From: Kondoa malvinella
Lineage: Eukaryota; Basidiomycota; Agaricostilbomycetes; Agaricostilbales; Kondoaceae
NCBI GenBank assembly: GCA_039545315.1
Contig: BCIM01000016.1
Coordinates: forward strand, 124,001 to 188,000
Direction: 5' to 3'
DNA length: 64,000 nucleotides
Shown piece by piece: positions 10,251-27,982 of this stretch. A model generated the notes under the pieces. It ran no database searches. It saw only the letters and a list, made by a program, of their open reading frames with translations, and was not told the DNA's origin. The stretch's first letter is position 1. Every line of letters begins with the position of its first letter. The translations under genes and the position numbers were made by a program.

Positions 10251-10929
10251 GGTGGAAACTTAGATTTGTCAATGTGAGCAGTCTACGCTTGCTGCCGTGT
10301 CTGTGTCAGCTGATAGCATTGTAGAGTGTACATACATCCACCTCGGCCGAATCGTCAAGCCAGACAAGATCGCCACTGGCACTTGAATGATGATTGTTGC
10401 AGATTCGACTCGTTTCAAGGGTTGTCGAACTCAAGAAGCAGTGTTCTGCTGTACTGCCGCATTACTCAACTTGAAACCCACTTGTTTCCGCCGCGCGGTT
10501 CTACTGCATGATCAGGTGGTGAACGACCTAATCGACCTATCATAGTCGAGATTTGCCTCGTCAGCTGCGGCACTGCGGCCCTCCCATCGTCATCTTACAC
10601 TCTGATCTGGCCTTCCTACCGCCCCTAGTCTTCGCATTGCTCTGCTGCCTGCACTGCAAGTTTTCACGGTCCGCTATTACCCATTGGCTATGCTGTATTT
10701 GGCCTGTGTTCCGGCTACTTCCAAGTCTCTCATAAGCATATTTCGCTCTAGTCCCTTGTACAGCCAACGGCCTCAGCGATGGTCCAGGCTGTGCTATGAC
10801 GCGGAATTCAATACTCGAGCAGTGTTCTTTACCCGGTTTCGTCCTGCCTCTTGGCGTGTCTTCTATGTTCCTTTACTCCTTTGCGACCAATGCCGCTACT
10901 TTGACAGTAAATTCCGAATGCCGAAATAG
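10251..10929. other. Intergenic region before the polyproline gene
   Basis: About 680 bp without a supported gene. Short ORFs show no conserved motif and no clean splice joins. It presumably holds the CFD1 terminator and the promoter and leader of the next gene; pyrimidine-rich stretches occur around 10560-10700. Confidence 0.4.
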
Positions 10930-13900
10930 ATGAATCAAGACCTTCGTTTGCAAAGCCTTGCATCAAGTCATGGCGTCCTACCCAGCCGACCTTTGGAGCC
11001 GACGCGACTCTTTTCTCATGCTCCTTTGAATCAAAGAGGACCGGCCTCTAGTCCTGGTAGACAATCTTGGCCACCACAGCGTCCGGCGACCTTTCCCGTC
11101 CTCCAAGGCAGAGTGCCTCCCGCTGTCTCCACCCAGTCAGTCACAGCACAACCGCCTACCGGTTTGACGAGACCTATGCCAGCTTTACCCGTGAGCTCGC
11201 CTTGATCACATTGGGCGAATACCGATTGCGCGCTTAATCCACTTTCGCAGAAGCTTAAGCCTGCCGTGAAGGAGCACTTTCGTCCTGCGCCTCCTGTAAG
11301 TCTATATGATGGCCCGTGTCTGTAGCTGATCATTGCATAGCCGCCTTTGGGCTTTCGGCCAACCAAGTCTACTTCAGCTGTTCCGACCATAAAAGCCTCT
11401 GACACGGTAAGCCGCTCTCTCAAGATGATAGCATAGGCCTGACCACAAACCACAGCCGAAAGCCGAAGGGGAGGCTAAAGCATCAGACGGCAAGCCAGAG
11501 AGCAAACCTGACGAGAGGAAAGACGGCTCGCCGAACAGCGCAAGAGTCGAGCCAGGCAAAGAAGGGGACAAGAAAGATGACCAAAAGCCTGATGATAAGG
11601 ACAAGAAGCCAGATTCTGATTCAGGCGACAAAAAGCCTGACGGCAAATCTGACGAAAAGCCATCGGACGGCAAGAAACCTGAAAAGACACCTGCTCAACT
11701 AGAGCAAGAGAAAGCTGAGAATACAGCGAAGAAGATTTTCGAGGAGAAGAAACTGATGGACGATCTTGCAAAGAAGAAGAAAGAGGAAGACGAGGTTGGT
11801 CCTGTATCGATTGGCAGAGGGATCGACGCTGAAGTAATTTACAAGTAGAAGGCTAAGAAAGCTGCTGAGATGGCTGCTGGGCCTTCTTTGTCGGTGAGTT
11901 CCAATGAAAACAAATCCATGACCTGGCTTATGATTGACTTGTTAGGCGATGATGGTGCGCTTGAATTACGTCTCAGCTGTATTTGATGCTGACGAGCGAC
12001 GGATAGAACGGACCTAGGTATGCAGGTTTAGAATGCCCAACGTCAAGCTCATTTTTGATCGATAGACCAATGTTTCCTGATTTGGCACCTGCCGCACCGC
12101 CGTGCGGAGATCTCTATCTACAGTTTCTCTTGGCTGATCCCTTTATAGTGCTCCACCTGGTCCTGCACCTGTTTGCTTCACTTCCGGACGCGATTGAGCT
12201 GTACTGACATGAATGGTATAGCCCGCTCCCGCTCCTGTAAGTACACCCCATGCTGTGTGGAAGGCAGCTGACACTCCTTGCTCCTAGGGTCCTCCTGTAT
12301 GTACCGATGAAACTGTTCGATTGTAGTTGACAGGTCAGTCTAGCCACCTGCTCCGGTCAGTCTAGCTTCTTCTACTGATCTTACACTACCTTACATGTCC
12401 TGTTCTCATAATTAGCCACCTCCACCGTAAGATCTCGCTTCTGTCGCCTGTGTGCTGTCTGACTTTGTGAATTGTTTTATAGACCACCTGTGAGCATTTC
12501 TGGGTGTTCTTCGACGTATACTTGCTGACTGCTCCCGCTCCACCAGCCTCCTGCGTAAGAATGTTCCATCGAGTCTGTGTATGCTCTAAGATTTGATCTG
12601 CAGACCTCCACCACCTGTTTGTCTCGCTTTGCGCACCTCTATTTGTGCTGACCTATTTGCAAGCCACCACCACCACCACCTCCTCCGTAAGCTCTCTTTT
12701 GCCTGGAGATTCAAAGCAGCTCATGTGAATGCTACTAGCCCTCCTCCTCCATTGCCGTACGGTAGTTTCCGATGAATACCTTGATTTCGCTGATAATCTT
12801 CTGACAGTCCGGTTCGTCTGAGTGGTGACAACAGCTGACATGCTAACATATCGCTACCGCTGATTGTAGCCCCCGTAAGTGTCAACTTACTTTTGCGCAT
12901 GACAAGTCTAATTGTTATTCCTCAGACCTGTGAGTAATTGCATTCAGATTAGTTATGTCTTCTAAAAAAGCATCGTGTCGCTTCGTAGCCACCGTACGTG
13001 TCCTTCGTCCACTATCTTGCTCTTCCTGTCTGACGATGTCTTGCCAGACCGGTAAGCCTTTACCCTGCTTTTCTTTTTCAGGTCCTGAACAGAGCTCGTT
13101 CATGCTGCTAGCCACCGTGAGTTGCATATAATACAGATATAGGCATGCACTCATAGCTGACATGTCAAATCTGCCAGACCTGTGAGTCCAGCTACTTATC
13201 AGACGTGTCACTGGAACTGACACCAATACGCCTTTCTTCTTAGCCACCGTAAGTTGTACCATTGTTCTTCGATATTGCTCTTCGATATTCATGTACTCAT
13301 TTTCCTAGCAGACCACCCGCACAGCCACCCGTAAGTGGTTCCTCGGTGCTTTTGACCATTTTGACCTAGCGTGATCCGCATGTTCAGCCCGTAAGTCAAA
13401 GTCTCTGCTACAATCGCTCTGTGATCTCATATCGATGGTATAGCCACCTCCACCACCGCCGTGAGTCTCATTTCATGTATTCTGATCGCGACAATGCCAA
13501 TTGATTTCGCGATCGGAATCTGCGATCACTGTTGAAGACTGCTTACTGCTTCACTTGTCTATAGCCCGCCTCCCGCTCCAGCACCTCCTCCGCCCGCGCC
13601 GGCAGCAGCTCCTATCGTTGCTCCGCCCGTCACGTTCCCTTGGGCCCAGTTACTTCAACAGCTGAAACCTCCAGTCCAGCCTGTGGCTCCCACTCCGCCT
13701 TCAATGCCTAATGCTCGCGAGCTGTCTGATGCGCCATCATTTAAAGCTCCTGCAGCGCCCAAAATACTCAAAAATGCGCCTGTCGAAGAGCTCGGTCTGC
13801 CCGACTTTCTGCCTGCCCATTTCGCAGAACAGCCTAGAGGTCGATCAACTTCGATGCCCGCTCGAGCTGGACGCTTCAACAAGGTGCAGGAAGATTGGAA

Positions 13901-15502
13901 TCCCATGCGAGCCATGTTCGATCAGCTAGGTGTTCCAGAGCAAGATCGGCAAGTATACAGATTGCTTTGCCTTGTCAGTATCTGATGCTATCACAGGCCT
14001 TCCAATCTGCACGACGTGAACGATGTGGACAAGCCTGAAAGGATTCCGAATACTGACCCCGTCATACCGGACCTTGGTCCTAGCATATCGCGAACAAAGC
14101 CTCCAACATCTTGGATGCCTATGCAAGACCGACCAGAAGTTAGAGCTGCATCTACAAATCCACATACGGGAGATTCTTACCCTGTACGTTTCATGCTTCC
14201 GGCCGCTCTCAAACTCAAGCAATTTCTGCAGTCATACATGCGCTTTCCTGAAGCAGAAAATCTCCCAGTACATGCAACCAGCCCGACGGAGCAGTTCTCG
14301 GAGCCGACAGCAGCATCTTCCAAAAGACCAGATGGTATATTCAGAACAAAGTCGCAGCCAGCTGACCGCGCACACGATGCGGCTTTCGAGCCTCACACCT
14401 TTGAAAGTCCCGCAAGCCGAATAGAAGAGCCCGTGGAGCCAATCCAGAGACCGGATGGCATGAACCATCGCAGCTTCAGCGAATCGGCATTGCGTCCTAG
14501 AAAGTCTGCCATGCGCCAGAAAGGAGCATCAAAGCGCTCGCTGTCGCCTACGCTGGAGATGGAAGACACCGCTCACCTGCTGCCCGACCATAGCCCTTCG
14601 TATGTGCGCTCTGATTGTCTAAGACCCAGCCTAAGACAGCCGTCACAGTTCGTCTATCTTTGACGCTTATCCTGAGAGCGTCCCGAAACAAGGCGTCAAC
14701 CATGAGCCTGGATATGACAGTCAAGAGGATGAACACGCACGCCCGTTGTACCCACCGTTACTGTAAGCTGCTTTGTGTTATAGAGTGCGTCGAGTCACGT
14801 TGATTTGCTTTGTAGACCTCAAGGCCAACCGGAACTGCTCAACACGCTAAATCCGCACGATACGTCTGATATGATGGACTTTCTTGGCTTCGGAGATGTC
14901 AAAGGCAAAGGCTTCATGCAGGTACATTTGCTCATGATCTTACGACAAGATTCAGGGCTGACTTTGAATAGCCAAACTACAAATCACCGCACAAGCTAGA
15001 GACTACTATATATGAAGATCCTTTCGCTTTGCATCAACCAGAAAGCTACGACGTGCAAGACGCGTACGAGCCAAAAGTGAGCGAATGTGACAATGTCTCC
15101 CGAAAAAGCTTATGCCAGATTAGGGTCTTATGCTTCAGCCCGACGCCATCATGCCTGGAGCTGGTCTCTTGAGTGCTCCGAACACCCCACGTTCTCGCTT
15201 TCATATGCAGAATCCTGTCAGTTGTCTGGTCTCGATTCAACTTGACCCTGCTGACTATTCAAAAGGAACTGCTGGACGTCTTTGATGTCAATCTGCCAGA
15301 AGATGACCCCTTCGAGGATGCTATGGCGAACCACAACCAACGCATGCGACCCTCAATGCCTCGAAGCAATTCCTCTTCAAGAAACTGCTCGATGTCAGAT
15401 CTGTACGCCTATTCTTCAGCAGCAGACCACCAGGATCATATCTATGCTCTTACGCATGTGCACGAGCCTTATGGCACCCAGCCGATGCTGCCTATTGCGT
15501 GA
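10930..15502 (+). CDS. Unrecognised polyproline protein encoded by an array of microexons
   Basis: At least 35 exons. The N-terminal exons (10930-11190, 11251-11295, 11341-11406, 11456-11794, 11849-11893) encode a Pro/Ser-rich head, then a Lys/Asp/Glu-rich segment with a predicted charged helix (EEKKLMDDLAKKKKEEDE). Then come exons of 9, 11, 36 and 22 nt and, from 12222 to 13460, twenty exons of 3-23 nt that encode almost only proline. Joined in order they give uninterrupted runs of 16, 15 and 12 prolines and enter the exon at 13565 in the correct frame (FPWAQLLQQLKPP). The C-terminal half is Ser/Pro-rich with acidic motifs (NLPEDDPFEDAM, DMMDFLGFGD). The intron after 13948 has a GC donor (GCAAGT). 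The 3' end is uncertain: an alternative last splice would end at 15586. Polyproline could bind profilin, SH3 or WW domains; no known family is recognised. Confidence 0.8.
12222..13460 (+). other. Array of 20 proline-coding microexons
   Basis: Exons read directly: 12222-12236, 12288-12296, 12344-12355, 12416-12426, 12483-12489, 12547-12554, 12604-12616, 12664-12686, 12739-12756, 12808-12811, 12870-12874, 12926-12929, 12989-12993, 13048-13051, 13112-13116, 13178-13181, 13244-13248, 13312-13330, 13388-13390 and 13444-13460. Sizes are 15, 9, 12, 11, 7, 8, 13, 23, 18, 4, 5, 4, 5, 4, 5, 4, 5, 19, 3 and 17 nt. Internal introns are 47-63 nt, mostly with GTRNGT donors, CTGAC-like branch sites and YAG acceptors; the intron after the last exon is 104 nt. 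Phases are only 0 or 2, and every junction keeps the CCN reading frame. Confidence 0.85.
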
Positions 15503-15745
15503 ATACATGGCAGCGACTCGGAACGGTCCAACTTGTTTGAAGGCTACCCGAATCAATTTGATGATGAGCGATATGAGCAGTGTTAGTAAAGGAAAGCTAC
15601 GTAGAGTAGCAAGCAATGTAAAATGTACATATGGCCGCTGTTGTTGCGCATAACACTGATCACTCGCTCCCATCGACCATACACCCGTTTACAAAGTCCT
15701 GAAGGCCTCTACCGCAGGGGCAGTAGAGCACAAATTAATGCCCCT

Positions 15746-18700
15746 ATGACTGAGCAGCGAGTGAGCGCAGCGCAGAGCGTGCCCTTCCTTGTTGTTGAAA
15801 TGTTTTGTCCGTTGCAGAAGTCGGAAGTGCTGAACGAGAAGCAGCAAGCCCTGCAGTCAGTCTGTTGTCATGTGTTGTGTGGATATATCTGACACCTGCC
15901 TGCCCGACTACAGAGCCAGCCAGAGCCGCAGAGCAGACTTTCTAGGACATGCCTTCGAAGCACTTCGAGCTCTTCGCACCATTGGCGCAGAAGCCAAATT
16001 CCCAGAGCAGAGCTCCTTGAACAGTGATGCTGATAAGGATCAATTTATTGCTCACTTTACAAAGGGCGAAGAGTGAGTACTGCTATGGCACGGGTGCGTT
16101 GATGCATGTTGATCGCCTGCCTGGTGTGCAGCTCCGTTCTGGATTACCTCCCTACTGAGCTGCCTCCCATTGAGGAAGCCGCTGTTGGCTCCCCTCTGAC
16201 CTCTATCTCCTCGAACGATGAAGACGAGAAGCTCACTACGGAAGATGCAAGAGCTCGTTCAATGTCTGTAGATGTGCCAGCCGTGGAAGCCATTCCAGTA
16301 CCTGAGGCGCCCGCTCAGACAAGCACTGCTCCTGTTGCAAGATCACCTTCCAATGCGTCCGTCGAAGCAGCTTTACGACCTCCAGCCAGAGAAATCTTTC
16401 CTCTTAGACAGTCTGCTACGTGTCAAGCACCAACGCAAAGTCAATCGCCTCAGATATCTCCAACAGCTATCTCTCCTTCTATGCTGAACATCTCGAGCCC
16501 CGCAGTGCATACTCTTCGGGATGATGGAAACTTGTGGCATCCGCCCTCACTCCCGAGCAATTTCGAGAAGACTCTACCAGAGCTGCCTACCATATTATTG
16601 CGCAACAGGCCGTTAGCTGGAGGGCTATGGAGAAAGAAGAAAGAACGAGAAAAGGAAAGGGATTCGCGAAGCAGTGGATTGAGCGGCGGCACTGAACTGT
16701 TCAAGATGGGCCTGCTTCAAGCCACTCATTGTCCAGCTCGAAACATGGTCGGGCAGCCTCTAGATTCGAAAGCGCGTGTAGTCAGACCAGGCAAAGTCGT
16801 CTTTACCAATGATTGGAATGTTGCGATACAAGAGTTGAAGGGATTGCGAGCGATGGAAAAGATAGAGCAGATGAAGAGCGAGGGTAGATGGTCTTTTCGT
16901 CAGATCAAGAGACAGAAAGCTCCTCCTGTCGTCAAATCGCATCGGGATTATATGCTGGAAGAAATGGTAGGATCTTCTTAGCCGAGTTCATCATTATTCT
17001 AATAATGAGGCAGAGATGGCTGCACACCGACTTTCGGCAAGAATCGCGATGGAAGGTCGCAAGCGCCTTTGCACTTTCGACTGCTATTCTGGCCTACCAC
17101 GCTGCTTCGCCCGAAGATAGAAAGGCACTGTGTGTCAGATCTTGCATACCACAACCACTAGCAGAACAAGAAGCAGAGAAAGATGAAGCGCAAGCGATGG
17201 ATGTGGATGAAGATGTTCCTAGCGCGGATCCGGCACTTGCTTCTGCACCAAACACAGCGTCATCAATAGTCAATCCTGGTCCAGCTACTCTACAGCCCAG
17301 ACCGCCGTCGCAGCCGCAATTAGCCGGTTCTCAGCCCCAGCCTTCTCCTGCTGTGCCAGCCAAGCACTCTTCTGTCTCTTGGGAACAGCTCGTCAATCTT
17401 CGTTCTCCTCTCCTCCACTTACCAGATACCGCTACAACCATCTCGATGTCGCAGCTACCTCTTGACAAAGTGCTACCTCCCGATGCTGCAGAACGTACCA
17501 ACCTCGAATTGGTTAATGGCATGCTGCCAGATATTCAGCTTTACGAAATGTCGCAAGCGCCGCAACATCAAGAAGGAGCACCTGCACGGTCAGAGCGCCG
17601 CTTTGACGAGTCTTCAGCACATTACAACCGCGTGACGCATGTTTCGAAATGGTTCGATAGGAAGCCATTCCTTGTCAGCACGGTCAATCCAGCAAAGAAG
17701 CTAAGACTTGACAATACCTGGGCCGACCTGGCTGATATCGGTGTCGGTGATGATCCTCGTGAATTTGAGCTACGGCAGGATTCCACCCCTGTGGGTCCAA
17801 GTGAGTCCCATCGACTTTCGCTGGTGGATCTGCTTATGCAGTGCTTAGATCTCTTCAATGGCCGGAGACCGAAAGATTTGGCACCAAACATGCAATTCTC
17901 AGCGCCTAAAGAGCCACCGAACGCTAGCGCACGCAATCTCGACTGGTCAGAAGGGGAAGACAACCTACTTCTTATGATGTCAAAGCAATACTCGCATAAC
18001 TGGCATCTCATCTCGGAAGTCTTCAACAGCACGACTGTTCGGGTTCCGACTGATCTGCGTCAGCCTTGGGATGTCTACGACCGATGGAACAAGAGATTTG
18101 GCCCTGGCAGTCAGCCTAATCTCAATGCTGAGGCAAGCAAAGATGCGGCTGCAAATCAGAGCAAGAAGGACAAGAACAAGAAAGCTCCCAAGTTCGAAGG
18201 CACCAAGAAGGAAGTCAGACATCTCAGTCTGTATGAAGCTGTCAGAGCTTTAAAGGCACGACGAGATGCTCAACCACCCAAGATGGCTCGTGAGTCACAA
18301 TATGCTCTTACGCTTGATACCTGTTGACGCTTGTGATAGCCAATGCACCGAGGAAGGTCAATCTGTCTGCTCACGAAACACATACTCAACCTCAGCGACC
18401 AATCTTGACGCCTATCGAGATCAGCAAGATCAAAGCTGAAAACGATAGACAACAGCTGCTCATGAGACAACAACAGCTTGCAATGCGTCAGCAGCAAGCA
18501 GCTATGGCTCAACAGTATCAGATGCAACAGCAACAAGCCGCACACCAGGCGAGATTACAAGTTCAGCAAAATGCGAATGCAGTGGAAGGCTCGCAAGGCC
18601 AGCCTTCGCAACAAGGCGTTAGTCTGTGCTAAGTATAACCGATCAATCTGACTTGTCCTTGTAGTCTCGCCCTCCAAGCGCTGCGCCGAGCGGTAGCCCA

Positions 18701-19147
18701 GCTCAGCTTCCCGGTCAATTACCTCAAAACTCTGGCCCACCACCTAGTCCAGCTCAATTTGCCAACCAGCTTCCAATGCATGGTAGTCCTTCATCTAGCC
18801 AGCCGAATCAGCAAGTACCCATGCTCAACCAGATGGCGATGATGAACCAAATGAATCAATTCACTCCAGCTCAACAAGCTGCTTTACAGCAACACTTAAG
18901 AATGAACGCTGGAAGTCCGGGCGGGCAACCTGGCATGCCTCAAGACAATCAGAATCAAGCAGCGTTACAAGCAGCGCTCCAAGCTCGAATGCAAGCTATG
19001 ATGTAAGCTCCTTTGACCATAATTGACTGCGCTGAGACTTCGTGCTACAGGCAACAGCAACATCAACAGCAGCAGCAGAATCAAGGGCCTCCTCAATCGA
19101 ACGAAAGTGATGCGGCGGAATTCGCTTCGAGTTTGACCAATCTGTAG
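15746..19147 (+). CDS. EAF1: NuA4 acetyltransferase complex subunit Eaf1/Vid21
   Basis: The gene starts with a 15-nt coding exon (15746-15760, MTEQR), then two short exons and an N-terminal helical block (ADFLGHAFEALRALRTIG). The centre holds an HSA domain: RPGKVVFTNDWNVAIQEL at about 16787, then RDYMLEEMRWLHTDFRQE after splicing 16964-17011, then RWKVASAFALSTAILAYH. A Myb/SANT domain follows near 17938 (LDWSEGEDNLLLMMSKQYS, NWHLISEVFNS). The C-terminus (18330-19147) is glutamine- and methionine-rich. HSA followed by SANT without a SNF2 ATPase is the layout of Eaf1, the platform subunit that assembles the NuA4 histone H4/H2A acetyltransferase. The HSA part recruits actin and Arp4 by family knowledge. 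Several introns are inferred by frame continuity. Confidence 0.88.
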
Positions 19148-19303
19148 ATCTCCCTTGTATGGCAGAGCTCCGACATGTAGATGTGTACAATGACATATTG
19201 CTTAGGACCTTGAATACGCTGAAGCAAGTTCGCGAGACCAACCTGTTGTTCACGAAACACCGCGTCATTCCCATGCTATACCTGCTTTCTTGATACCAAA
19301 CAC

Positions 19304-22300
19304 ATGAATAGTCATACCCTTGTACTCCAGAAATGTCAGCCTTTGTCCGGCTGCCCCTGATGATTTGAGCTGATGTCCATTTTCGTCAGACCAACTCTAT
19401 GAAACGAGATCTCGCTTCTACATTATTGGCTCGAACCAGAGCGAGACTCAATACAAGGTACTGTGCAGAAGATCCAAGACAGCGAAGCTTGGAGTGACTC
19501 AAGTGGTTCTATAGGTGCTCAAGATTGACCGGTCGGAACATCACACGCTCAACGTAGTCGAAGATGGAGCGATCTATTCGCAAGCTGAAATATCAGAGCT
19601 CGTTGCTATGATTGAAAACGGTAACAAGTCAGCTGGTGGCCTGATCTGTCCAATGCCGCTGTTCTATGGCATAGTTGGTCAGTAGTCTCGCTATTATTGC
19701 TCACGATGCAGCTTAGGTTAGGTGGACAGGCTTTACGCGCTTCACGGCTGGATGGTACCTTGTGCTCATCAAGCGAAAATCAGCTGTCGCGCTGGTCGGA
19801 GGGCACTATCTCTACCATTGCGAAGAGACTGTCATTGTGCCTATTGATGCGAAGCCTGACAAGAGCGCAGAGGAAATGAGGTATGCGCAAACATGTCGAA
19901 TAGAGTAGCATCTGATTGATTCAGGCTGCTCAATGCCTTTCAGCAAGTCAATCTGTCAAAGAACTTCTACTTCTCGTATGTTTGCGTCCGTACGAGCTAC
20001 CATGCCGACTCATCAAATTCATAGCTACACCTATGACTTGACCAACACGCTGCAGCGGAATCTCACACATGTCAAGGCAGACACAGTAGCAGAAACGAGC
20101 GCTAGCGGAGCAGCGAGGAACGGTCCTCCTTCGGCCTGGGGATTCAATGACAAATTCGTCTGGAATTGGCATCTGTTACAAAGTGCCTTTGCGAATCCAA
20201 ACGAAGCGAGCGCTTGGGTTTTACCGCTTGTGCATGGATTTTGCGATCAAGCGAGTGAGTGATCTGCCGTAACTACCTATAAAGGGCTGATACGGTATGA
20301 CAGAGCTGTCCGTCTTTGGCAGGACGGTCTATGTCACTTTGATTGGTCGGCGGTCTCGTCATTTCGCTGGAGCTAGATTCCTGAAACGCGGTATCAACGA
20401 TGAGGTATACTCGTAGCGCAGATTCCATTCATCCCGGCTGATGGCTAGCAGGGCTTTGTCGCCAACGATGTAGAAACAGAACAAATCGTCTCCGAAGCAT
20501 TGACGACTCCTTTTTACGCGCCACTTCCGCGGTGGGAATCAGAAGGACCGGAGGGGTCTCGTCTCAGAGACAGGCGAGTCAGCCCAAGATATACCAGCTA
20601 CGTCCAGCATCGAGGTAGTATACCTGTCTATTGGTCACAAGATGCTACTGGGATGCAAGCTAAGCCGCCTATCAATGGTAAGCTGAGTGTCGACGAGATG
20701 AGTACATTTGCTGATATGTACTGGAAGTCGGAGTGATCGATCCTTTCTTCTCTGCTGCTGCTTTGCATTTTGATGACTTGTTCGGTCGATACGCGACGCC
20801 AATCATCGTGCTCAATCTTATCAAGGTTTGCTCTACTGCGTTGCAGGGCTACAATTCAGGGCTAACTACATTGCTAGACCAAAGAAAGCGCTCCACGAGA
20901 ATCAAAGCTTCTTCCAGAACTCACAGAATGCATCGACTACCTCAACCAGACATTACCGAAGGACAAGAAGATCCAATACATTGGCTTCGATATCGCTACA
21001 GCTAACAAGAAGTACACAGCTCTCCTCCAATATAGATTACGCTGATACCATTTTAGGCACAATGTGGACGTCATTGCTCGACTGGAAGACGAAGCTCAGA
21101 AAGTGCTCGAGCTCACTGGCATCTTTCATAGCGGCTCGCATCCACTTGCATATGGCGATGATCAAGATGTTAATGAAGACACGTTGCGCTATCGCTCTTC
21201 TATGGCCTTGCAGACTGGAGTATGTCGGACGAATTGCATTGACTGTCTCGAGTGAGCTGCTCCTTTCCTGTGAAAGATGAAAGTTGATCATAAACAGTCG
21301 CACGAATGCTGCGCAATTCATCATCGGCAGAGCAGCTTTCGGTCGTCAGTTGCATGCGCTTGGTATACTCAAGGACGCGGTCGTGCCTTTCGATTCGGCT
21401 GCAGCAGATCTACTGACCGGAATGTATCACGATGTGAGTACACGTTGGTCTCAAAAGACTCCAGCTGAGCACAGCTATAGCATGGGGATACGATCGCCAT
21501 CCAGTACGGCGGCAGTGTTCTAGCCAATACGATCGAGTCGTACAAGATGAAAGAGTGGAAGAGTCGCAGTCGAGATATGCTGGCTGGCATCAGTCGCTAC
21601 TATGCCAACTCCTTTTCAGGTCTGTGCCTTCCTCGGGAAGGGGAATAGCTTAGCTGATGCATATCCGCAGACGCTGACAAGCAAGTCGCAATCAATCTCT
21701 TCCTCGGCATGCAAACAGTCGGCATACCTCTGACAGCTCGACCTTCGAACCGATCCTACGTTCAATGGTACACTCCTTCTTACATTGACCAGACTCCAAA
21801 TGCAGAGGTAGCGCAACGTAGTGCATGCGAGCAAGTACAGGAGGATGATGCGTATTGGATAGATTAGTGGGTCTATTTGTCTCCCTCAGAACAGGTCTGA
21901 CCTTTGTCGATCAGCTACAAACCCAACCTATTGACTGACTTGAAACTACATTTCGCTTTCACTTTACATGGCAACCTCGCATATACGCATCTACAGTAAG
22001 CGCTCAATACACGATCCGGCCTAGCTGACGCGAGTGCAGTCATGGAGTGGATGCAATGCTGTTCAGTCCCTTCAAAACTCGATTGGGACCAGTTGCGCTT
22101 CGCGATTCTCGTCGTTCAAAGTACGTGTCCGTTTATCTCGTGCTCCACAAGATTGACACGTATGGTAGACCAGCTAGCACCGGAGGTAGCCTGGGCGTCC
22201 GAAAATGGATGAGCGGAAAGAAAGCCCTACCAGCCCTTCGAGACGTCTCGGCCAAACCTGTTGCGCAGGCTGACGAGGAGAAGCCTGCGGCTGGACCCGT

Positions 22301-22709
22301 TGCCTGGACCAGCGAAGCTCTTGGCTCGAGACATTTGCAGCCGTCTGTCAGCACTGCTCTTGCTGCAGAGTACGAGGAGTAAGCATTCAATGCCGTCGGC
22401 TCTTCGTTGCTGACAGATCTATGTAGCTACGTACAGCAGTCGATCATCGGTAGGTGCAGCGCCTTGCATGGCTGGAAGATCTGACATGCATCTACAGTGT
22501 CTGAGCAAGATGTCAAGATCTACGAAACCTCTCAACACCTGTCCGAACATATTCACAAGAGTTCTCCTTTGCCTCATGCGACTCGACAGATGCTTCTCGA
22601 GCATAGCTCCTTGTGCGTGCATTCATTGTCGGAAGGATAATGGAGCTGATATTTGAGCAGATCTCGGATTGTGGCCTATCAGCTTGGTCATACGACTATA
22701 CCGGTATGA
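19304..22709 (+). CDS. FIG4: Sac-domain polyphosphoinositide phosphatase Fig4
   Basis: The coding trace begins with [20 protein letters not shown] near 19392 and runs through the Sac domain in many short exons. The catalytic CX5R motif is seen after splicing 21250-21299: NCIDCLDRTNAAQF. Other family blocks are [32 protein letters not shown] and YFHSGSHP-type text near 21120. Fig4 removes the 5-phosphate of PI(3,5)P2 and, with Vac14 and the Fab1/PIKfyve kinase, controls vacuole and endosome membrane identity. The 5' end is uncertain: the ATG at 19304 needs an 80-bp intron to reach the first clear exon. The 3' end is also uncertain: the best splice gives a stop at 22709, but a plausible further exon ending at 22991 (ending GYGILRSAE) may belong to it. 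Confidence 0.88.
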
Positions 22710-23147
22710 TCACGAGAAGCTACAGGCAAGCGCCTGAGGTCGAGATGACCAACTCATCAGCGGAAGTGACGGGGTCAAAGAAGCGAAGCGACATTCTCGA
22801 TATACCGCGCATGCCGAGCAGGGCTTGCGTCGCGGTGAGCTGCACAAGACCAGCCTATCTCTGCACGATGTGCAGACACGGACAAGGTTGGCAAGCACTG
22901 GGTGAATGAGGAGAAATCTTGGCATGGCGCATTGCAAAGGTGGACAGGCAGGCAACGAGCAGGCTATGGGATCCTACGCTCTGCAGAGTAGCGCTGTACA
23001 CTGCGAACCTCGCAGACTTTTGAGAGCTGAATCTCGTCGTCATCTTTTGACCAACACAACTCTTACTCGAACAGCGACTCCTGTCTTCTCCCAAGCTACA
23101 GGACAACCCTTTCCTTAACTGATTACATCCACCATCGTTACTATCCA

Positions 23148-26100
23148 ATGGCACCAGGTCCTTATTCAGTCGAAGTAACAAAGCCAAACCCAGGCGAAGG
23201 CGCAGTCGTATGCTTTGCCCGCGTTTCCCGCTGTGGCCTTCTGACACTCTTGCCCTGCAACAGAGACGATGCACGCTCAGCCCGGACGAGCTTCTGACCA
23301 TTCCAGAACCTGGCTGCCGAACTCTTTATGATTCTCTCGAACGAAGCGCTCGGCTCTTCCCTACGAACAAAGCACTTGGATGGAGAGACCAGATCAAAGT
23401 ACATGATGTCGAGAAAGAGATCACTAAGCAGGTGGATGGCAAAGAGGTCAAGGAGAAGAAGAACTGGAAGTACTTTGAGATGACGGTCAGCCAATTCATT
23501 GTCTTACTTTGGGCTTAGGCCGATATGGGCTTGTATTGTCTGACAGGACTACAAGTACATGAACTACTCGCAAGTGCAGCAAGAAGCGAAAGAGCTCGGA
23601 TCTGCGCTCAAGCACCTCGGGCTGGACAAGTCTACTCGCTTCAACATCTTTGCTTCCACTTCCCCTCACTGGTTCACCATGTCTTTTGCCTGTGTTACGC
23701 AATCCATCACTTTCTGCACGAGTTACGATTCATTAGGTGTTGACGGGGTTCGTCTTCCTCACTGCAATTCAGCCAAGCCGCTGATGAGCTTTGGGGACTC
23801 GAACAGCTTAAACATTCCCTCAACGAACCAGAGGTAGTAGGCATGTACACAAACGCCGATCTGCTCTCTACCGTCGCAGGCGCGATCGGCGACTGCCCAA
23901 CTGTCCGCGTCGTCATCTACCAAGGCGAGCTCACCGACAAGAGCCTCAAATCAAAGATCGAGTCCACAAGGGAGAACTTGAAGGTCTATTCTGTTGAGGA
24001 GCTTCGAGAATTGGGCAAAGCCAACCCTTGCGAACCTGTTCCGCCCAAGCCTGAAGACATTGCTTGCATTATGTACACGTGAGTCTTTTCCTCCCTATAC
24101 AGTATAGGTCCTCGAGTAACACGGCCTCACAGTTCTGGATCTACCGGCACGCCGAAAGGTGTCATCATCTCGCATCACCAAGTCGTTTCGTCCAGTAGGC
24201 AGTGAAGCTTGCTTAGCGTTTAAAAAGCTTACATGTGGTGTCTTTGCTGCAGTTGCTGGTGTTACTGTCCTGCTCGCCGATTTCGTGAAACCTGGAGAAT
24301 CCTACATCGGTGCGCACGCACGGATGTATGTCAGTTTATACAGCTGATTCCTCAGTGTCGTCGGCGTACAGCCTACTTGCCACTTGCTCGTGAGTGATGA
24401 GACATGTCTTCACTTTCGTTTGGATGCTAAAGATCCATACAGACATCCTTGAATTTGTCGTCGAAATGTGCATGTTCTACGTCGGCGTTCCGATGGGCTA
24501 CGGTAATGTCAAGACACTCACCGATACCTCAATGAAGAACTGCGTCGGCGATATCAGAGCTTTCCAACCTACCATCATGTGTGGTGTGCCTTCAGTTTGG
24601 GAATTGATCCGCAAAGGCATCCAAAGCAAAGTCAAAGCCGGTGGAGCAGTCAAGGAGAAACTCTTCCAAGGCGCTATGGCCGCAAAGACGTTCAACAAGA
24701 CGCTCTTTGGTGGTATTACCGATGCGGTCGTTTTCAAACAGGTGAAGCAGGCGACTGGTGGAAAGTTGAAATATGCCATGAGCGGTGGAGCACCTATCAG
24801 TCAGAGCACGCAGCAATTCTTGATGACTTGTTTGGTCACTACTATTCAAGGTTACGGTGAGTGGTGCGAAGACTTCGCAAATTCCTGTCTGATGCTTTAC
24901 TTTACTTACAGGTCTGACGGAGTCTTGCGGGTATGTCTCTCATCTTCCTCTCGGCCGTTGCTAAAGACAATTGCATTATGAAGTATGTGTGGTGAGTCTA
25001 AACGTAGCCTCTTCTTTACACGGGGTAGTGACGGATGGTTGTTGATTCACAGCCATTCTACCACCCAGCTACCCTCGTTACCACACCGTCGGTGTACCTG
25101 TCCCATCTATCGAAGTCAAGCTCGTGGACTGCAAAGATGCCGGCTACGTTACTTCCAACAAGCCATCGCAAGGTGAAATCTACATCCGTGGTGGATCAGT
25201 CACGCAGGGCTACTTCAAGGTTGGTCTTTTGCGCAGAGTTGTCGGCTTGAGGCTGATAAACGTTGCTCAATTAACAGAGGGACGACCTGACAAAGGAAGC
25301 TTTCACTGAAGACAAGTGGTTCATGACTGGTGACATTGGCCAGTGGAACGAAGATGGTACTCTGAGCATCATTGACCGAAAGAAGGTGCGGAGGATTCCA
25401 GATTTGTGTCAATGCACGCTTATTCCAGACCCCGTGCAGAACTTGATCAAGCTGTCTGGCGGCGAATACATTGCTTTGGAGGTCAGTGGTCTAACCCAGC
25501 GATCGCCAGTTGAAATATTGATTGCTTTACTCTGACAGAAACTCGAATCTACATACAAGGCTGCTCCTATCGTGTCCAACATTCTGGTCAGTTCGAGTTG
25601 ATGACAGTCAGCATTAGCTGATGATTGTTAATTCTACCGACAGGTTCACGCTGACCCGAACGCCAAGCAGCCTATGGCTGTGTGTTCTCCGTTATTCTGC
25701 ATTTATCCTATGCTGAGTTCCTGTTCTATAGATTATCTCTGTTCACGAAGCGAATTTGAAGCACCTAGCGGGTAAAGACCAAGATGCCGAATCGCTCTGT
25801 CAGGACAAAGCCGTCAAGAAGGCTGCGCTTCAGCAATTGAACGATGCTGGTAAACAAGCTGGCTTCAAGCAGATGGAGGTTCGTCAGGCTTTAGCGTCAC
25901 TGATAGTGTCAGCTGAGCTTCGGCATGTGTGAACAGCTTTTGCAAGACATAATTCTCACTGCAGAAGAATGGACACCTGCTAGTGGCTTGGTTACGCCAG
26001 CTCAGAAGTTGCAGGTGAGTAGACTCGCGTTGCATAAGTGAAAGCCCTTCACGACGTTCTGTCCATCACAGCGCAAGAAGTTGCAAGAGCATTACAAGGA

Positions 26101-26187
26101 ATCGATAGAGAAGACTGGCTACGGCAAAGGTAATGGTCATCATGCTGCTGTTTCACTACGTGCTCATTGGACCTGCCAGATTCTTGA
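23148..26187 (+). CDS. Long-chain fatty acyl-CoA synthetase (Faa/ACSL family)
   Basis: The protein belongs to the ANL adenylate-forming superfamily. Seen in order: N-terminal region with [10 protein letters not shown] and [20 protein letters not shown]; the P-loop-like AMP-binding motif [20 protein letters not shown] split by an intron at 24079; [18 protein letters not shown]; the substrate-domain block [24 protein letters not shown] around the intron at 24856; [20 protein letters not shown]; and the C-terminal lysine region [16 protein letters not shown]. It activates long-chain fatty acids to acyl-CoA using ATP. The start ATG at 23148 gives [10 protein letters not shown] and fits the family; the last exon is 8 nt (26180-26187) and gives the terminal residues KDS. 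About ten introns are inferred from frame continuity. No peroxisomal targeting signal is visible at the C-terminus, so a cytosolic/ER/lipid-droplet enzyme is more likely. Confidence 0.93.
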
Positions 26188-26399
26188 TCTTATGGTGGAC
26201 CTGTCAACTCTTTGGACAATAATTAGTTTCCTGCTGCTTCTTTCTGAGTGATTGCGATATCCTGGACCGTGTACTATTAGCTAGAAATCTAACGACGTAT
26301 ATTGACTGTTGCGAGACTTTAGCAAATCATTCTCGCTTGAAATCGGGCAAGTTGACCTTCCAAAGCGACGATATCCTTCAACCCAAGTGCACAACGATC

Positions 26400-27982
26400 A
26401 TGGCCATGCTGAGAGCAACTGCGAGCCGGTCACTCAAGTCCGCAGCGAACAGCAACAAGACAGCAGGAGCCAAGCGCTGTCTGGCAACTCCCGCCAACTC
26501 TGCTTTCGACTTTACCGTCAACCAGGCAGGCCCTTTCAAGACTGCCGCCCATGATGATGGCCAGTCGCCTACTTCGGCAATCTCTATTGTTCTCAAAGCC
26601 GGTCCAAGATATGAGCCATCGCCTGGTTTGGCGCATGCCTTGAAAAACTTTGTATTCCGCGTGAGGTGACCAGGAGCCAGTCTCAGTATGAAGTGCTGAT
26701 TATGTCGACTGTTGTATGCTCACAGACTACCAACAAGCGAAGTGCTTTGAGAGTCATTAGGGAAACTGAGATTTATGGAGGAGTGCTTTCGAGTTCGCTT
26801 TCAAGGGAGCACCTCTTCTTGACTGCAGAGTTCCTAAGGGGAGACGAGTGAGTGCAGCTATGTTTGCATCATGCAGAACATGCGCCTAAACTTTCATTTG
26901 ACAGGGCCTACTTTGCTGAACTACTGGGCGATGTGTTGGGCGAATCGAAATTGACAGCACACGAATTCAACGAAGAAGTCGTACCTCAGCTCCAGTCAGA
27001 ATACAGCCAAGCCAGCTCGGAAGCGTCTACTCTTGCTATGGATGTCATGCACCAGCTCGCTTTCCGCAGAGGTCTGGGCAACTCCATGTTCGCTACACCG
27101 CACGTTCAGGTCAACTACGACAATGCCTCTTCATTTGCCAAAACTGCTCTAACCAACTCGTCCGATATGGCCGTTGTCGCTTCCGGCGTCGACGCAAACA
27201 CCTTGAAAGGCCTCGTAGCCGACTACTTCCCTTCGCAAAACTCGAACGCTTCTTCTCCAGCTTCAGCTTCATCAAGCTACTTTGGCGGCGAGATCAGATT
27301 ACCTTCCAACTCGCACGGATCCGGCGAACATGACAAAGGTCATGCCGAGCACGCCCACATCCTAGCCGGTTTCAAGGGTGGTCCAGCTTCAGCCGTGGAA
27401 TACACTGTTCTCCGTTACCTCCTCGGCGGTGAACCAGCTGTGAAATGGTCTACTGGTCACTCTGCTTTATCATCTTCTGCACCTGGCGCAAAAGCTTTCA
27501 ACCTCGGTTACAGCGACACTGGTCTTGTTGGTTTCAGCGTAGATGCACCTGTTTCGCAAGCGGGTGATATTGCGAGGAAAGCGGTTGCCGCGTTCAAGAA
27601 TGTTAGCCAGGGCGTTAAAGATGAACAATTGAAGGCTGCCGTGCAAAAGGCCAAGTTTGCTGTTGCATCTCAGCTGGAGAGCAGGGCGGGCAAGTTAGAG
27701 TTGATTGGTAGTCAGGTGAGTTGGTCTGCGCATTTGCTGTGTTTGCAGCTGATGTCCCGCCATTTCACAGCTCATGGCCGGATCTACTTCTGATGTACTT
27801 GCTGCTCTAGACAAGGTCACTGCTGAATCAGTCGCCAAGGTTCGTGAGACAGCTAGATGTGCTTTGTTCATGCTTACTGGATATCTGATGAACAGGCCGC
27901 TGCATCTGCACTCCAGTCAAAACCCAGCATGGTCGTCGTCGGCGACACGCACGCTCTGCCTCACGCAGATGAGCTCTTCTGA
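26400..27982 (+). CDS. QCR2: Ubiquinol-cytochrome c reductase core protein 2 (Qcr2)
   Basis: The N-terminus MAMLRATASRSLKSAANSN is basic and Ser-rich, as in a mitochondrial presequence. An M16 metallopeptidase-like fold follows: SAISIVLKAGPRYEPSPGLA, HALKNFVFRTTNKRSALRVI, then FNEEVVPQLQSEY and the second half with HILAGFKGGPASAVEYTVLR. The HXXEH zinc site of active M16 peptidases is replaced by HALKN, as expected for the non-catalytic core 2 subunit of respiratory complex III. It sits on the matrix side of the bc1 complex. Splits include introns at 26666-26724 and 27716-27769; the last exon ends at 27982 with HADELF. Length (about 430 residues) matches fungal Qcr2. Confidence 0.92.

What the first reader, a model, noticed from the sequence alone, without database searches (positions are those of the whole stretch)
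12222..13460. A polyproline coding tract shredded into 20 microexons
Within 1.24 kb, twenty exons of 3-23 nt (191 nt in all) alternate with introns of 47-63 nt. Each exon is bounded by a good AG and a good GT, and the introns carry CTGAC-like branch sites. Joining all of them by eye gives one uninterrupted proline frame (runs of 16, 15 and 12 prolines) that enters the exon at 13565 in the frame of the long downstream ORF. A chance alignment of about 40 splice sites that never breaks frame is very unlikely. I know of no described gene where a low-complexity tract is split this finely. The exons are so short that both flanking splice sites cannot be bound at once, so splicing must be ordered or use an unusual mechanism.
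Basis: seen in the sequence. Interest (0 to 1): 0.93.

Follow-up and report, generated by a model that had tools for sequence, protein, structure and literature searches.

The report
Polyproline tract built from twenty microexons
A fungal gene appears to write one long run of prolines as twenty scraps of 3 to 23 bases, each set off by a tiny intron; nothing this finely chopped turned up in the papers I could search, and it offers a direct test of how cells splice exons too small to be recognised on their own.

Summary
All 20 exons (191 nt) and the 19 introns between them (47-63 nt) lie at the stated places, and the joined frame runs on into the exon at 13565. Real score 152 against a maximum of -20 in 300 dinucleotide shuffles.

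The array lies in a closed frame of 888 codons, 10930-15502; a 22-nt exon (12149-12170) extends it upstream, making 21 consecutive exons of at most 23 nt. Conserved genes of the same genome need microexons too: 2 and 15 nt in RPB1, 17 in RPB2, 8 and 9 in two enzymes. No RNA and no relative's DNA was reachable, so splicing itself is inferred.

Ordered removal by intron definition suffices; no exotic mechanism is needed. Single microexons, down to 1 nt, are known; I found no such array in print (nine searches, open-licence library). Unbroken runs of ten or more CCN occur at only three places genome-wide, which suggests, without proving, that introns here break up a repeat.

The parts
10930..11893 (+). 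5' coding part, five exons (10930-11190, 11251-11295, 11341-11406, 11456-11794, 11849-11893)
   Evidence: splice-model path and open frame
11946..12101 (+). three small exons before the array: 11946-11954 (9 nt), 12007-12017 (11 nt), 12066-12101 (36 nt); less certain than the array
   Evidence: trained model; the untrained model gave one exon 12007-12101 instead
12149..12170 (+).
12222..12236 (+). microexon 1, 15 nt
12288..12296 (+). microexon 2, 9 nt
12344..12355 (+). microexon 3, 12 nt
12416..12426 (+). microexon 4, 11 nt
12483..12489 (+). microexon 5, 7 nt
12547..12554 (+). microexon 6, 8 nt
12604..12616 (+). microexon 7, 13 nt (the ordinary codon model merges 7-9 into one exon 12604-12756)
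12664..12686 (+). microexon 8, 23 nt, the longest exon of the array
12739..12756 (+). microexon 9, 18 nt
12808..12811 (+). microexon 10, 4 nt; first of eight alternating 4/5-nt exons
12870..12874 (+). microexon 11, 5 nt
12926..12929 (+). microexon 12, 4 nt
12989..12993 (+). microexon 13, 5 nt
13048..13051 (+). microexon 14, 4 nt
13112..13116 (+). microexon 15, 5 nt
13178..13181 (+). microexon 16, 4 nt
13244..13248 (+). microexon 17, 5 nt
13312..13330 (+). microexon 18, 19 nt
13388..13390 (+). microexon 19, 3 nt (weakest support: score drop 5.0 if its sites are banned)
13444..13460 (+). microexon 20, 17 nt
13461..13564 (+). last array intron, 104 nt, with a predicted hairpin that would shorten it
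   Evidence: fold energy -28.0 kcal/mol, no shuffle control
13565..13948 (+). downstream exon the array reads into (proline/alanine-rich start); its 3' part has counterparts at 82-88% identity on two other contigs
13997..15502 (+). remaining six coding exons (13997-14599, 14649-14762, 14816-14921, 14972-15076, 15124-15216, 15266-15502) to a stop codon
   Evidence: exon 13997-14599 has counterparts at 85-87%

Best explanation
This is one protein-coding gene (10930-15502, 36 exons, 888 codons and a stop) of a short-intron, intron-rich fungus. Its central proline tract is written as 20 microexons of 3-23 nt (21 with 12149-12170). Shown: the sites, the frame, the signals, the statistics, and that conserved genes of the same genome need exons as small as 2 nt. 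Inferred: the spliceosome recognises each 47-63-nt intron as a unit (donor, branch site and acceptor across the intron), so exon size does not matter for recognition. Where neighbouring introns sit only 3-5 nt apart they are unlikely to be engaged together and are removed one after another, each cut fusing a scrap to its neighbour. Inferred, weaker: part of the array grew by tandem duplication of a two-exon, two-intron unit (5 nt + 4 nt = three prolines), since diverged, which lengthened the proline run without making a simple DNA repeat.
For: Exact sites and frame. A chain of 8 pure-proline in-phase exons against 1 elsewhere in 563.5 kb of strand-length. 19 of 21 introns hold a stop if retained singly, and skipping all 20 exons (191 nt) breaks the frame. 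Proline-rich coding on both sides. Five microexons in four conserved genes were tested against solved relatives and all five fit: RPB1 (2 and 15 nt), RPB2 (17), an MFE-2-like enzyme (8), P5C dehydrogenase (9). The introns are about as short as the 58-nt ones that free a C. elegans microexon from PRP-40 (PMC8378409, passages). Unit duplication: eight exons alternate 4,5,4,5,4,5,4,5 and their acceptors alternate CAG and TAG.
Against: No RNA was seen. Shuffles under that model also use microexons (mean 5.7, maximum 10 of 25 nt or less), so it is the score and the proline frame, not the mere count, that tell. No relative's DNA over the array could be fetched. Intron likeness is weak, the CAG/TAG rule fails elsewhere in the array (TAG|A at 12483, CAG|C at 12547 and 13388), and the 4/5 alternation is partly forced by the frame, so duplication is only suggested. 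Array acceptors are a little weaker than average.
Confidence: 0.85

Rival explanations
1. The array is real but leaky (a variant of the best explanation, not exclusive of it): most transcripts skip blocks of microexons, giving a ladder of proline-tract lengths; the full form is one isoform among many.
For: 102 of the 210 possible contiguous block skips stay in frame and stop-free, because the 21 introns are all in phase 0 or 2 (12 and 9). Small exons are often skipped in vivo (PMC8378409, passages).
Against: 108 of 210 block skips, and 15 of 20 single-exon skips, break the frame, so random skipping would often give dead mRNA. Donors are strong.
Confidence: 0.35
2. One large intron, or a few, removes the whole stretch and the microexons are decayed or decoy sites.
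For: Three frame-keeping single-intron joins from the donor at 12171 exist, 1479-1509 nt (which looked only at donors from 12150 to 12236 and acceptors from 13400 to 13699).
Against: Training introns have a median of 51 nt, and 37 of 717 exceed 100 (the model allowed no more than 199, so longer ones could not be seen). A jump from 12171 to the acceptor at 13564 is out of frame, since 191 is not a multiple of 3. Decoys would not keep a proline frame across 20 exons.
Confidence: 0.06
3. Two separate genes, with the array an intergenic or untranslated stretch.
For: Gene bounds come only from a home-made model; decoded over the whole window it merges this gene with later ones (10930-27982, 84 exons).
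Against: One stop-free frame of 888 codons runs through, with proline-rich coding on both sides of the array.
Confidence: 0.04
4. Chance alignment of AG and GT in C-rich sequence.
For: Such sites are common: 14138 AG..GT candidates of 3-25 nt in 563.5 kb of strand-length.
Against: 0 of 300 shuffles came near the score, and 0 of 1000 gave a pure-proline chain longer than 2.
Confidence: 0.01

Closest known systems
Micro-exon genes (MEGs) of schistosomes and tapeworms
   Same: Runs of consecutive very small exons making up much of one gene (PMC4350168 and PMC7653826, passages).
   Different: MEG microexons are, by the tapeworm paper's criteria, under 70 nt and divisible by three, so they can be skipped singly; here 5 of 20 are divisible. 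MEG products are linked to secretions and glands; this is a fungal protein without a known domain. Here the tract is near-pure proline.
Microexons of plants, including 1-nt exons of APC11 and VPS55
   Same: Exons of 1-15 nt of any length modulo 3; ordered intron-definition splicing proposed (PMC4674806, PMC8831610, passages).
   Different: In the passages I saw, one or two adjacent microexons, not 20.
Human RPS24
   Same: Three microexons in a row between exons 4 and 6 (PMC11162997, start of abstract in the listing).
   Different: Three, not 20; not a homopolymer tract (recalled).
Tiny exons of fungi (Cryptococcus, Phanerochaete P450 genes, Trichoderma Xlr2)
   Same: High intron density and exons down to 1 bp in Cryptococcus (PMC3990503, passages); introns of 45-55 bp and exons down to 6 bp in Phanerochaete (PMC1184071, passages); a regulated microexon in Trichoderma (PMC11121469, start of abstract).
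   Different: No array in a low-complexity tract is described in what I saw.
Repetitive protein tracts coded by many short exons (titin PEVK, collagens; recalled; the one search found nothing)
   Same: A repetitive tract divided over many small exons.
   Different: From memory those exons are tens of nt long and in frame; here 3-23 nt and mostly not.
Recursive splice sites
   Same: Stepwise removal of neighbouring intronic segments.
   Different: Those are zero-length AG|GT sites, typically in very long introns (PMC13149111, passages); here 3-23 coding bases remain each time.

Membership tests
Micro-exon gene (MEG), criteria of PMC7653826 | at least seven exons | tested here: met
   36 exons in the model, lengths
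Micro-exon gene (MEG), criteria of PMC7653826 | at least half of the exons under 70 nt and divisible by three | tested here: not met
   10 of 36 by the lengths (45, 66, 45, 9, 36, 15, 9, 12, 18, 3)
Micro-exon gene (MEG), criteria of PMC7653826 | run of at least four consecutive such exons | tested here: not met
   longest run is three (15, 9, 12), lengths
Microexon (internal exon of up to about 27-30 nt) | length and canonical AG and GT flanks | tested here: met
   20 of 20
Microexon (internal exon of up to about 27-30 nt) | inclusion in mature mRNA | not testable with these tools
   no RNA data at hand
Recursive splicing site | AG directly followed by GT, no exon left | tested here: not met
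   3-23 nt between AG and GT in 20 of 20
Introner (recently copied introns) | introns nearly identical to each other or to copies elsewhere | tested here: not met
   only weak local matches among the 20 introns from 12237 to 13564; the array DNA matches only itself in the genome, (a search that skips simple repeats)
Formin (polyproline FH1 followed by FH2) | FH2 domain after the proline tract | tested here: not met
   no Pfam family at E up to 1 in the 888-aa translation; the genome's FH2 matches lie on C1 and C2

The most novel reading that the evidence does not exclude
Introns used as repeat-breakers: the gene keeps proline runs of 16, 15 and 12, longer than any unbroken CCN run in this genome's DNA (11), because introns split the codons into stretches of at most 23 nt, so no long CCN repeat exists to slip; and skipping between introns of the same phase makes an in-frame ladder of tract lengths from one gene.
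Probability: 0.25. Interest if true: 0.9.

Novelty: new variant of a known kind. Interest (0 to 1): 0.77.

Why it matters
It is a natural stress test of splicing: 21 consecutive exons too small for exon definition, most of which break the frame if skipped. If cDNA confirms it, the order of intron removal, the smallest workable spacing of splice sites and the fidelity of intron definition become measurable in one transcript. It also raises a testable idea, that introns can stabilise a homopolymer tract at the DNA level. Ordinary annotation and short-read alignment are likely to miss such genes.

Tried and rejected
Other polyproline genes: the FH2 matches of this genome lie at two places. The proline tract before the one on C2 has unbroken CCN runs of 8 and 7, that on C1 of 7 and 5, so shredding is not a general fate of polyproline here.

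Genome-wide look-alikes: the array DNA matches only itself. A two-microexon proline pattern finds 2 matches, both in this array (control 0). A pattern for 5-nt exons between CTGAC branch sites gave 4 matches, two of them overlapping, against 8 for the reversed control: no excess. Three strong donors at microexon spacing gave 4 matches against 5 control and 12 against 7: no clear excess. The array is one match in each list, and the other three loci decode as genes with tiny exons (8+16; 24, 8+20; 2+15 nt). The other 11 could not be read.

Longest microexon runs elsewhere: 4 and 3 consecutive internal exons of 25 nt or less, in 70 modelled genes of the training set. That sample is about 1.5% of the genome.

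Common origin of the introns: 5 of 190 pairs exceed the 99% shuffle level, 1.9 expected, mostly short matches; not convincing.

A search at full length found none (0 of 7122 candidates), nor did Pfam or the viral contigs. The organism was not identified; 'fungus, probably basidiomycete' is my inference from intron habit and gene content.

Papers: searches. None listed a fungal or polyproline microexon array; the library lacks most subscription journals. The original MEG paper is not held.

Full report
What is there. The window is G000:C16:124001-188000 of an unnamed 19.09-Mb genome in 20 contigs. Joined, they read as prolines with a few A, G, L and Q, and CC from the last microexon joins CCCG at 13565 to continue in the long downstream frame. 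The script began the downstream exon one base early and so printed shifted downstream frames; the full path, with the right start, is 2667 nt, 888 codons and a stop, with no internal stop. The proline runs of 16, 15 and 12 stand in that translation; the last takes its final four prolines from the exon at 13565.

Model of the genome's splicing. I trained a simple exon-intron model on the window outside 10801-15700 and on 22 stretches of 9-10 kb of G000. After four rounds it held 717 introns, median 51 nt, interquartile 48-56, branch motif GCTGAY, 4.7 introns per kb of coding sequence, and 66 of 648 internal exons of 25 nt or less. These are model predictions, not curated genes; the model cannot see introns over 199 nt, and 37 of its 717 exceed 100. 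Array donors score a little above the training median, branch sites about the same, acceptors a little below.

Significance. In 300 dinucleotide shuffles of 12171-13564 the proline model reached at most -20.3 and the ordinary one -10.3. The shuffles too were read with some microexons (mean 5.7, maximum 10), so the count of tiny exons alone proves little; the score and the frame do. A count with fewer assumptions agrees: 15 pure-proline AG..GT candidates in 1.39 kb against 119 in 563.5 kb of strand-length elsewhere, and an in-phase chain of 8 against 1 elsewhere and at most 2 in 1000 shuffles. Banning both sites of any one exon costs 5.0 to 30.9 units; the 3-nt exon at 13388 is the least secure.

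Can this organism splice such exons? Conserved genes answer for it. In RPB1 (L038) the stretch LNLSVTSPYNADFDGDEMN is coded by an exon ending in ACT, a 2-nt exon TC, a 15-nt exon ACCTTATAACGCAGA and a further exon; the protein aligns there without a gap or a mismatch, up to DEMN, to chain A of 3h0g (S. pombe by my recollection). The only other reading I see is a 20-nt exon from an earlier AG, which keeps the frame but inserts six residues into this motif; conservation speaks against it. RPB2 needs a 17-nt exon, a P5C dehydrogenase a 9-nt one, an MFE-2-like enzyme an 8-nt one; each aligns without a gap across the microexon. These five microexons are all that I tested against solved relatives; other predicted ones were not tested. 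Two further genes decode with 8+16 and 8+20 nt exons; their names (NmrA-like, MFS-like) are my recognition, not a search result. So the array looks like the extreme of a habit of this genome.

How it most likely works. Introns near 50 nt suit intron definition. In C. elegans, microexons depend on the U1 factor PRP-40, less so as flanking introns shorten, and 58-nt introns can free one of that need (PMC8378409, passages). Genes with FF domains, which Prp40 bears, lie at two places on C12, not shown to be Prp40. For a 1-nt exon in Arabidopsis the authors hold it unlikely that both neighbouring introns go at once and propose removal one after another (PMC4674806, passages). The same reasoning, repeated along the array, is my explanation; it is inference.

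Design and origin. The 21 introns from 12171 to 13564 are in phase 0 (12) or 2 (9), none in phase 1; indeed none of the gene's 35 introns is in phase 1, against 234 of 717 in the training set. Because of this, 102 of 210 contiguous block skips keep the frame and only shorten the tract; 15 of 20 single-exon skips break it. Exons 10-17 run 4,5,4,5,4,5,4,5 nt, and from exon 10 to exon 18 the acceptors alternate: phase-2 introns end in CAG, phase-0 introns in TAG. In the training set the base before AG hardly predicts the first exon base. This suggests tandem duplication of a two-intron unit worth three prolines. Against it: elsewhere in the array the rule fails (TAG|A at 12483, CAG|C at 12547 and 13388), within-class intron likeness is marginal (4 of 70 labellings as good, p = 0.057), and the alternation is in part forced by the frame.

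Why break the tract? In the whole genome, unbroken runs of ten or more CCN occur at three places, one a poly-C tract (5 matches; the two overlapping ones on C14 make a run of 11; the reversed control is the same pattern and says nothing). In the 282.5-kb sample the longest unbroken run is 8, reached twice, once inside this array and once before a formin FH2. An intronless version of this gene would hold the longest such run of the genome, 16. Either selection or slippage keeps such tracts short and introns let this one persist, or the duplication that lengthened it simply brought introns along. I cannot tell these apart, and other shredded tracts would not show in the unbroken-run count.

Relatives. 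The exon at 13997 and the exon at 13565 have counterparts at 85-87% and 82-88% identity in ENA and Logan sources (P0001-P0004); both Logan proteins come with a contig length of 76,083, so probably one contig. Those proteins start downstream of the prolines and say nothing of the array.

Known kinds. Flatworm micro-exon genes share the run of tiny exons but are defined by lengths divisible by three (PMC7653826, passages), a test this gene fails. Plants have microexons down to 1 nt (PMC8831610, passages), and Cryptococcus has exons 'as small as 1 bp' (PMC3990503, passages). I therefore rate it a new variant of a known kind. The statement that no such array is in print rests on the searches in an open-licence library only.

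Noticed in passing
L038 (G000:C13, near 401.4 kb), locus bases about 1480-1700: RPB1 of this genome appears to have a 2-nt exon (TC) followed by a 15-nt exon, coding the serine and PYNAD of a highly conserved active-site motif. A 2-nt exon in an essential gene deserves its own check by RNA-seq.
   Followed up: partly
window 10930-15502: None of the 35 introns of this gene is in phase 1, though a third of the training introns are. The lack extends beyond the proline tract and is unexplained.
   Followed up: partly
window 13461-13564: The one long intron of the array (104 nt) folds into a hairpin (-28.0 kcal/mol; no shuffle control) that would bring its effective length nearer to that of the others.
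   Followed up: partly
G000, training set: About 5% of model introns begin with GC instead of GT, including the one at 13949 in this gene.
   Followed up: no
L036, L037: Two other genes found through closely spaced strong donors decode with pairs of tiny exons (8+16 and 8+20 nt).
   Followed up: partly
G000:C11:195048-195093: A poly-C tract of 46 bases with two interruptions.
   Followed up: no
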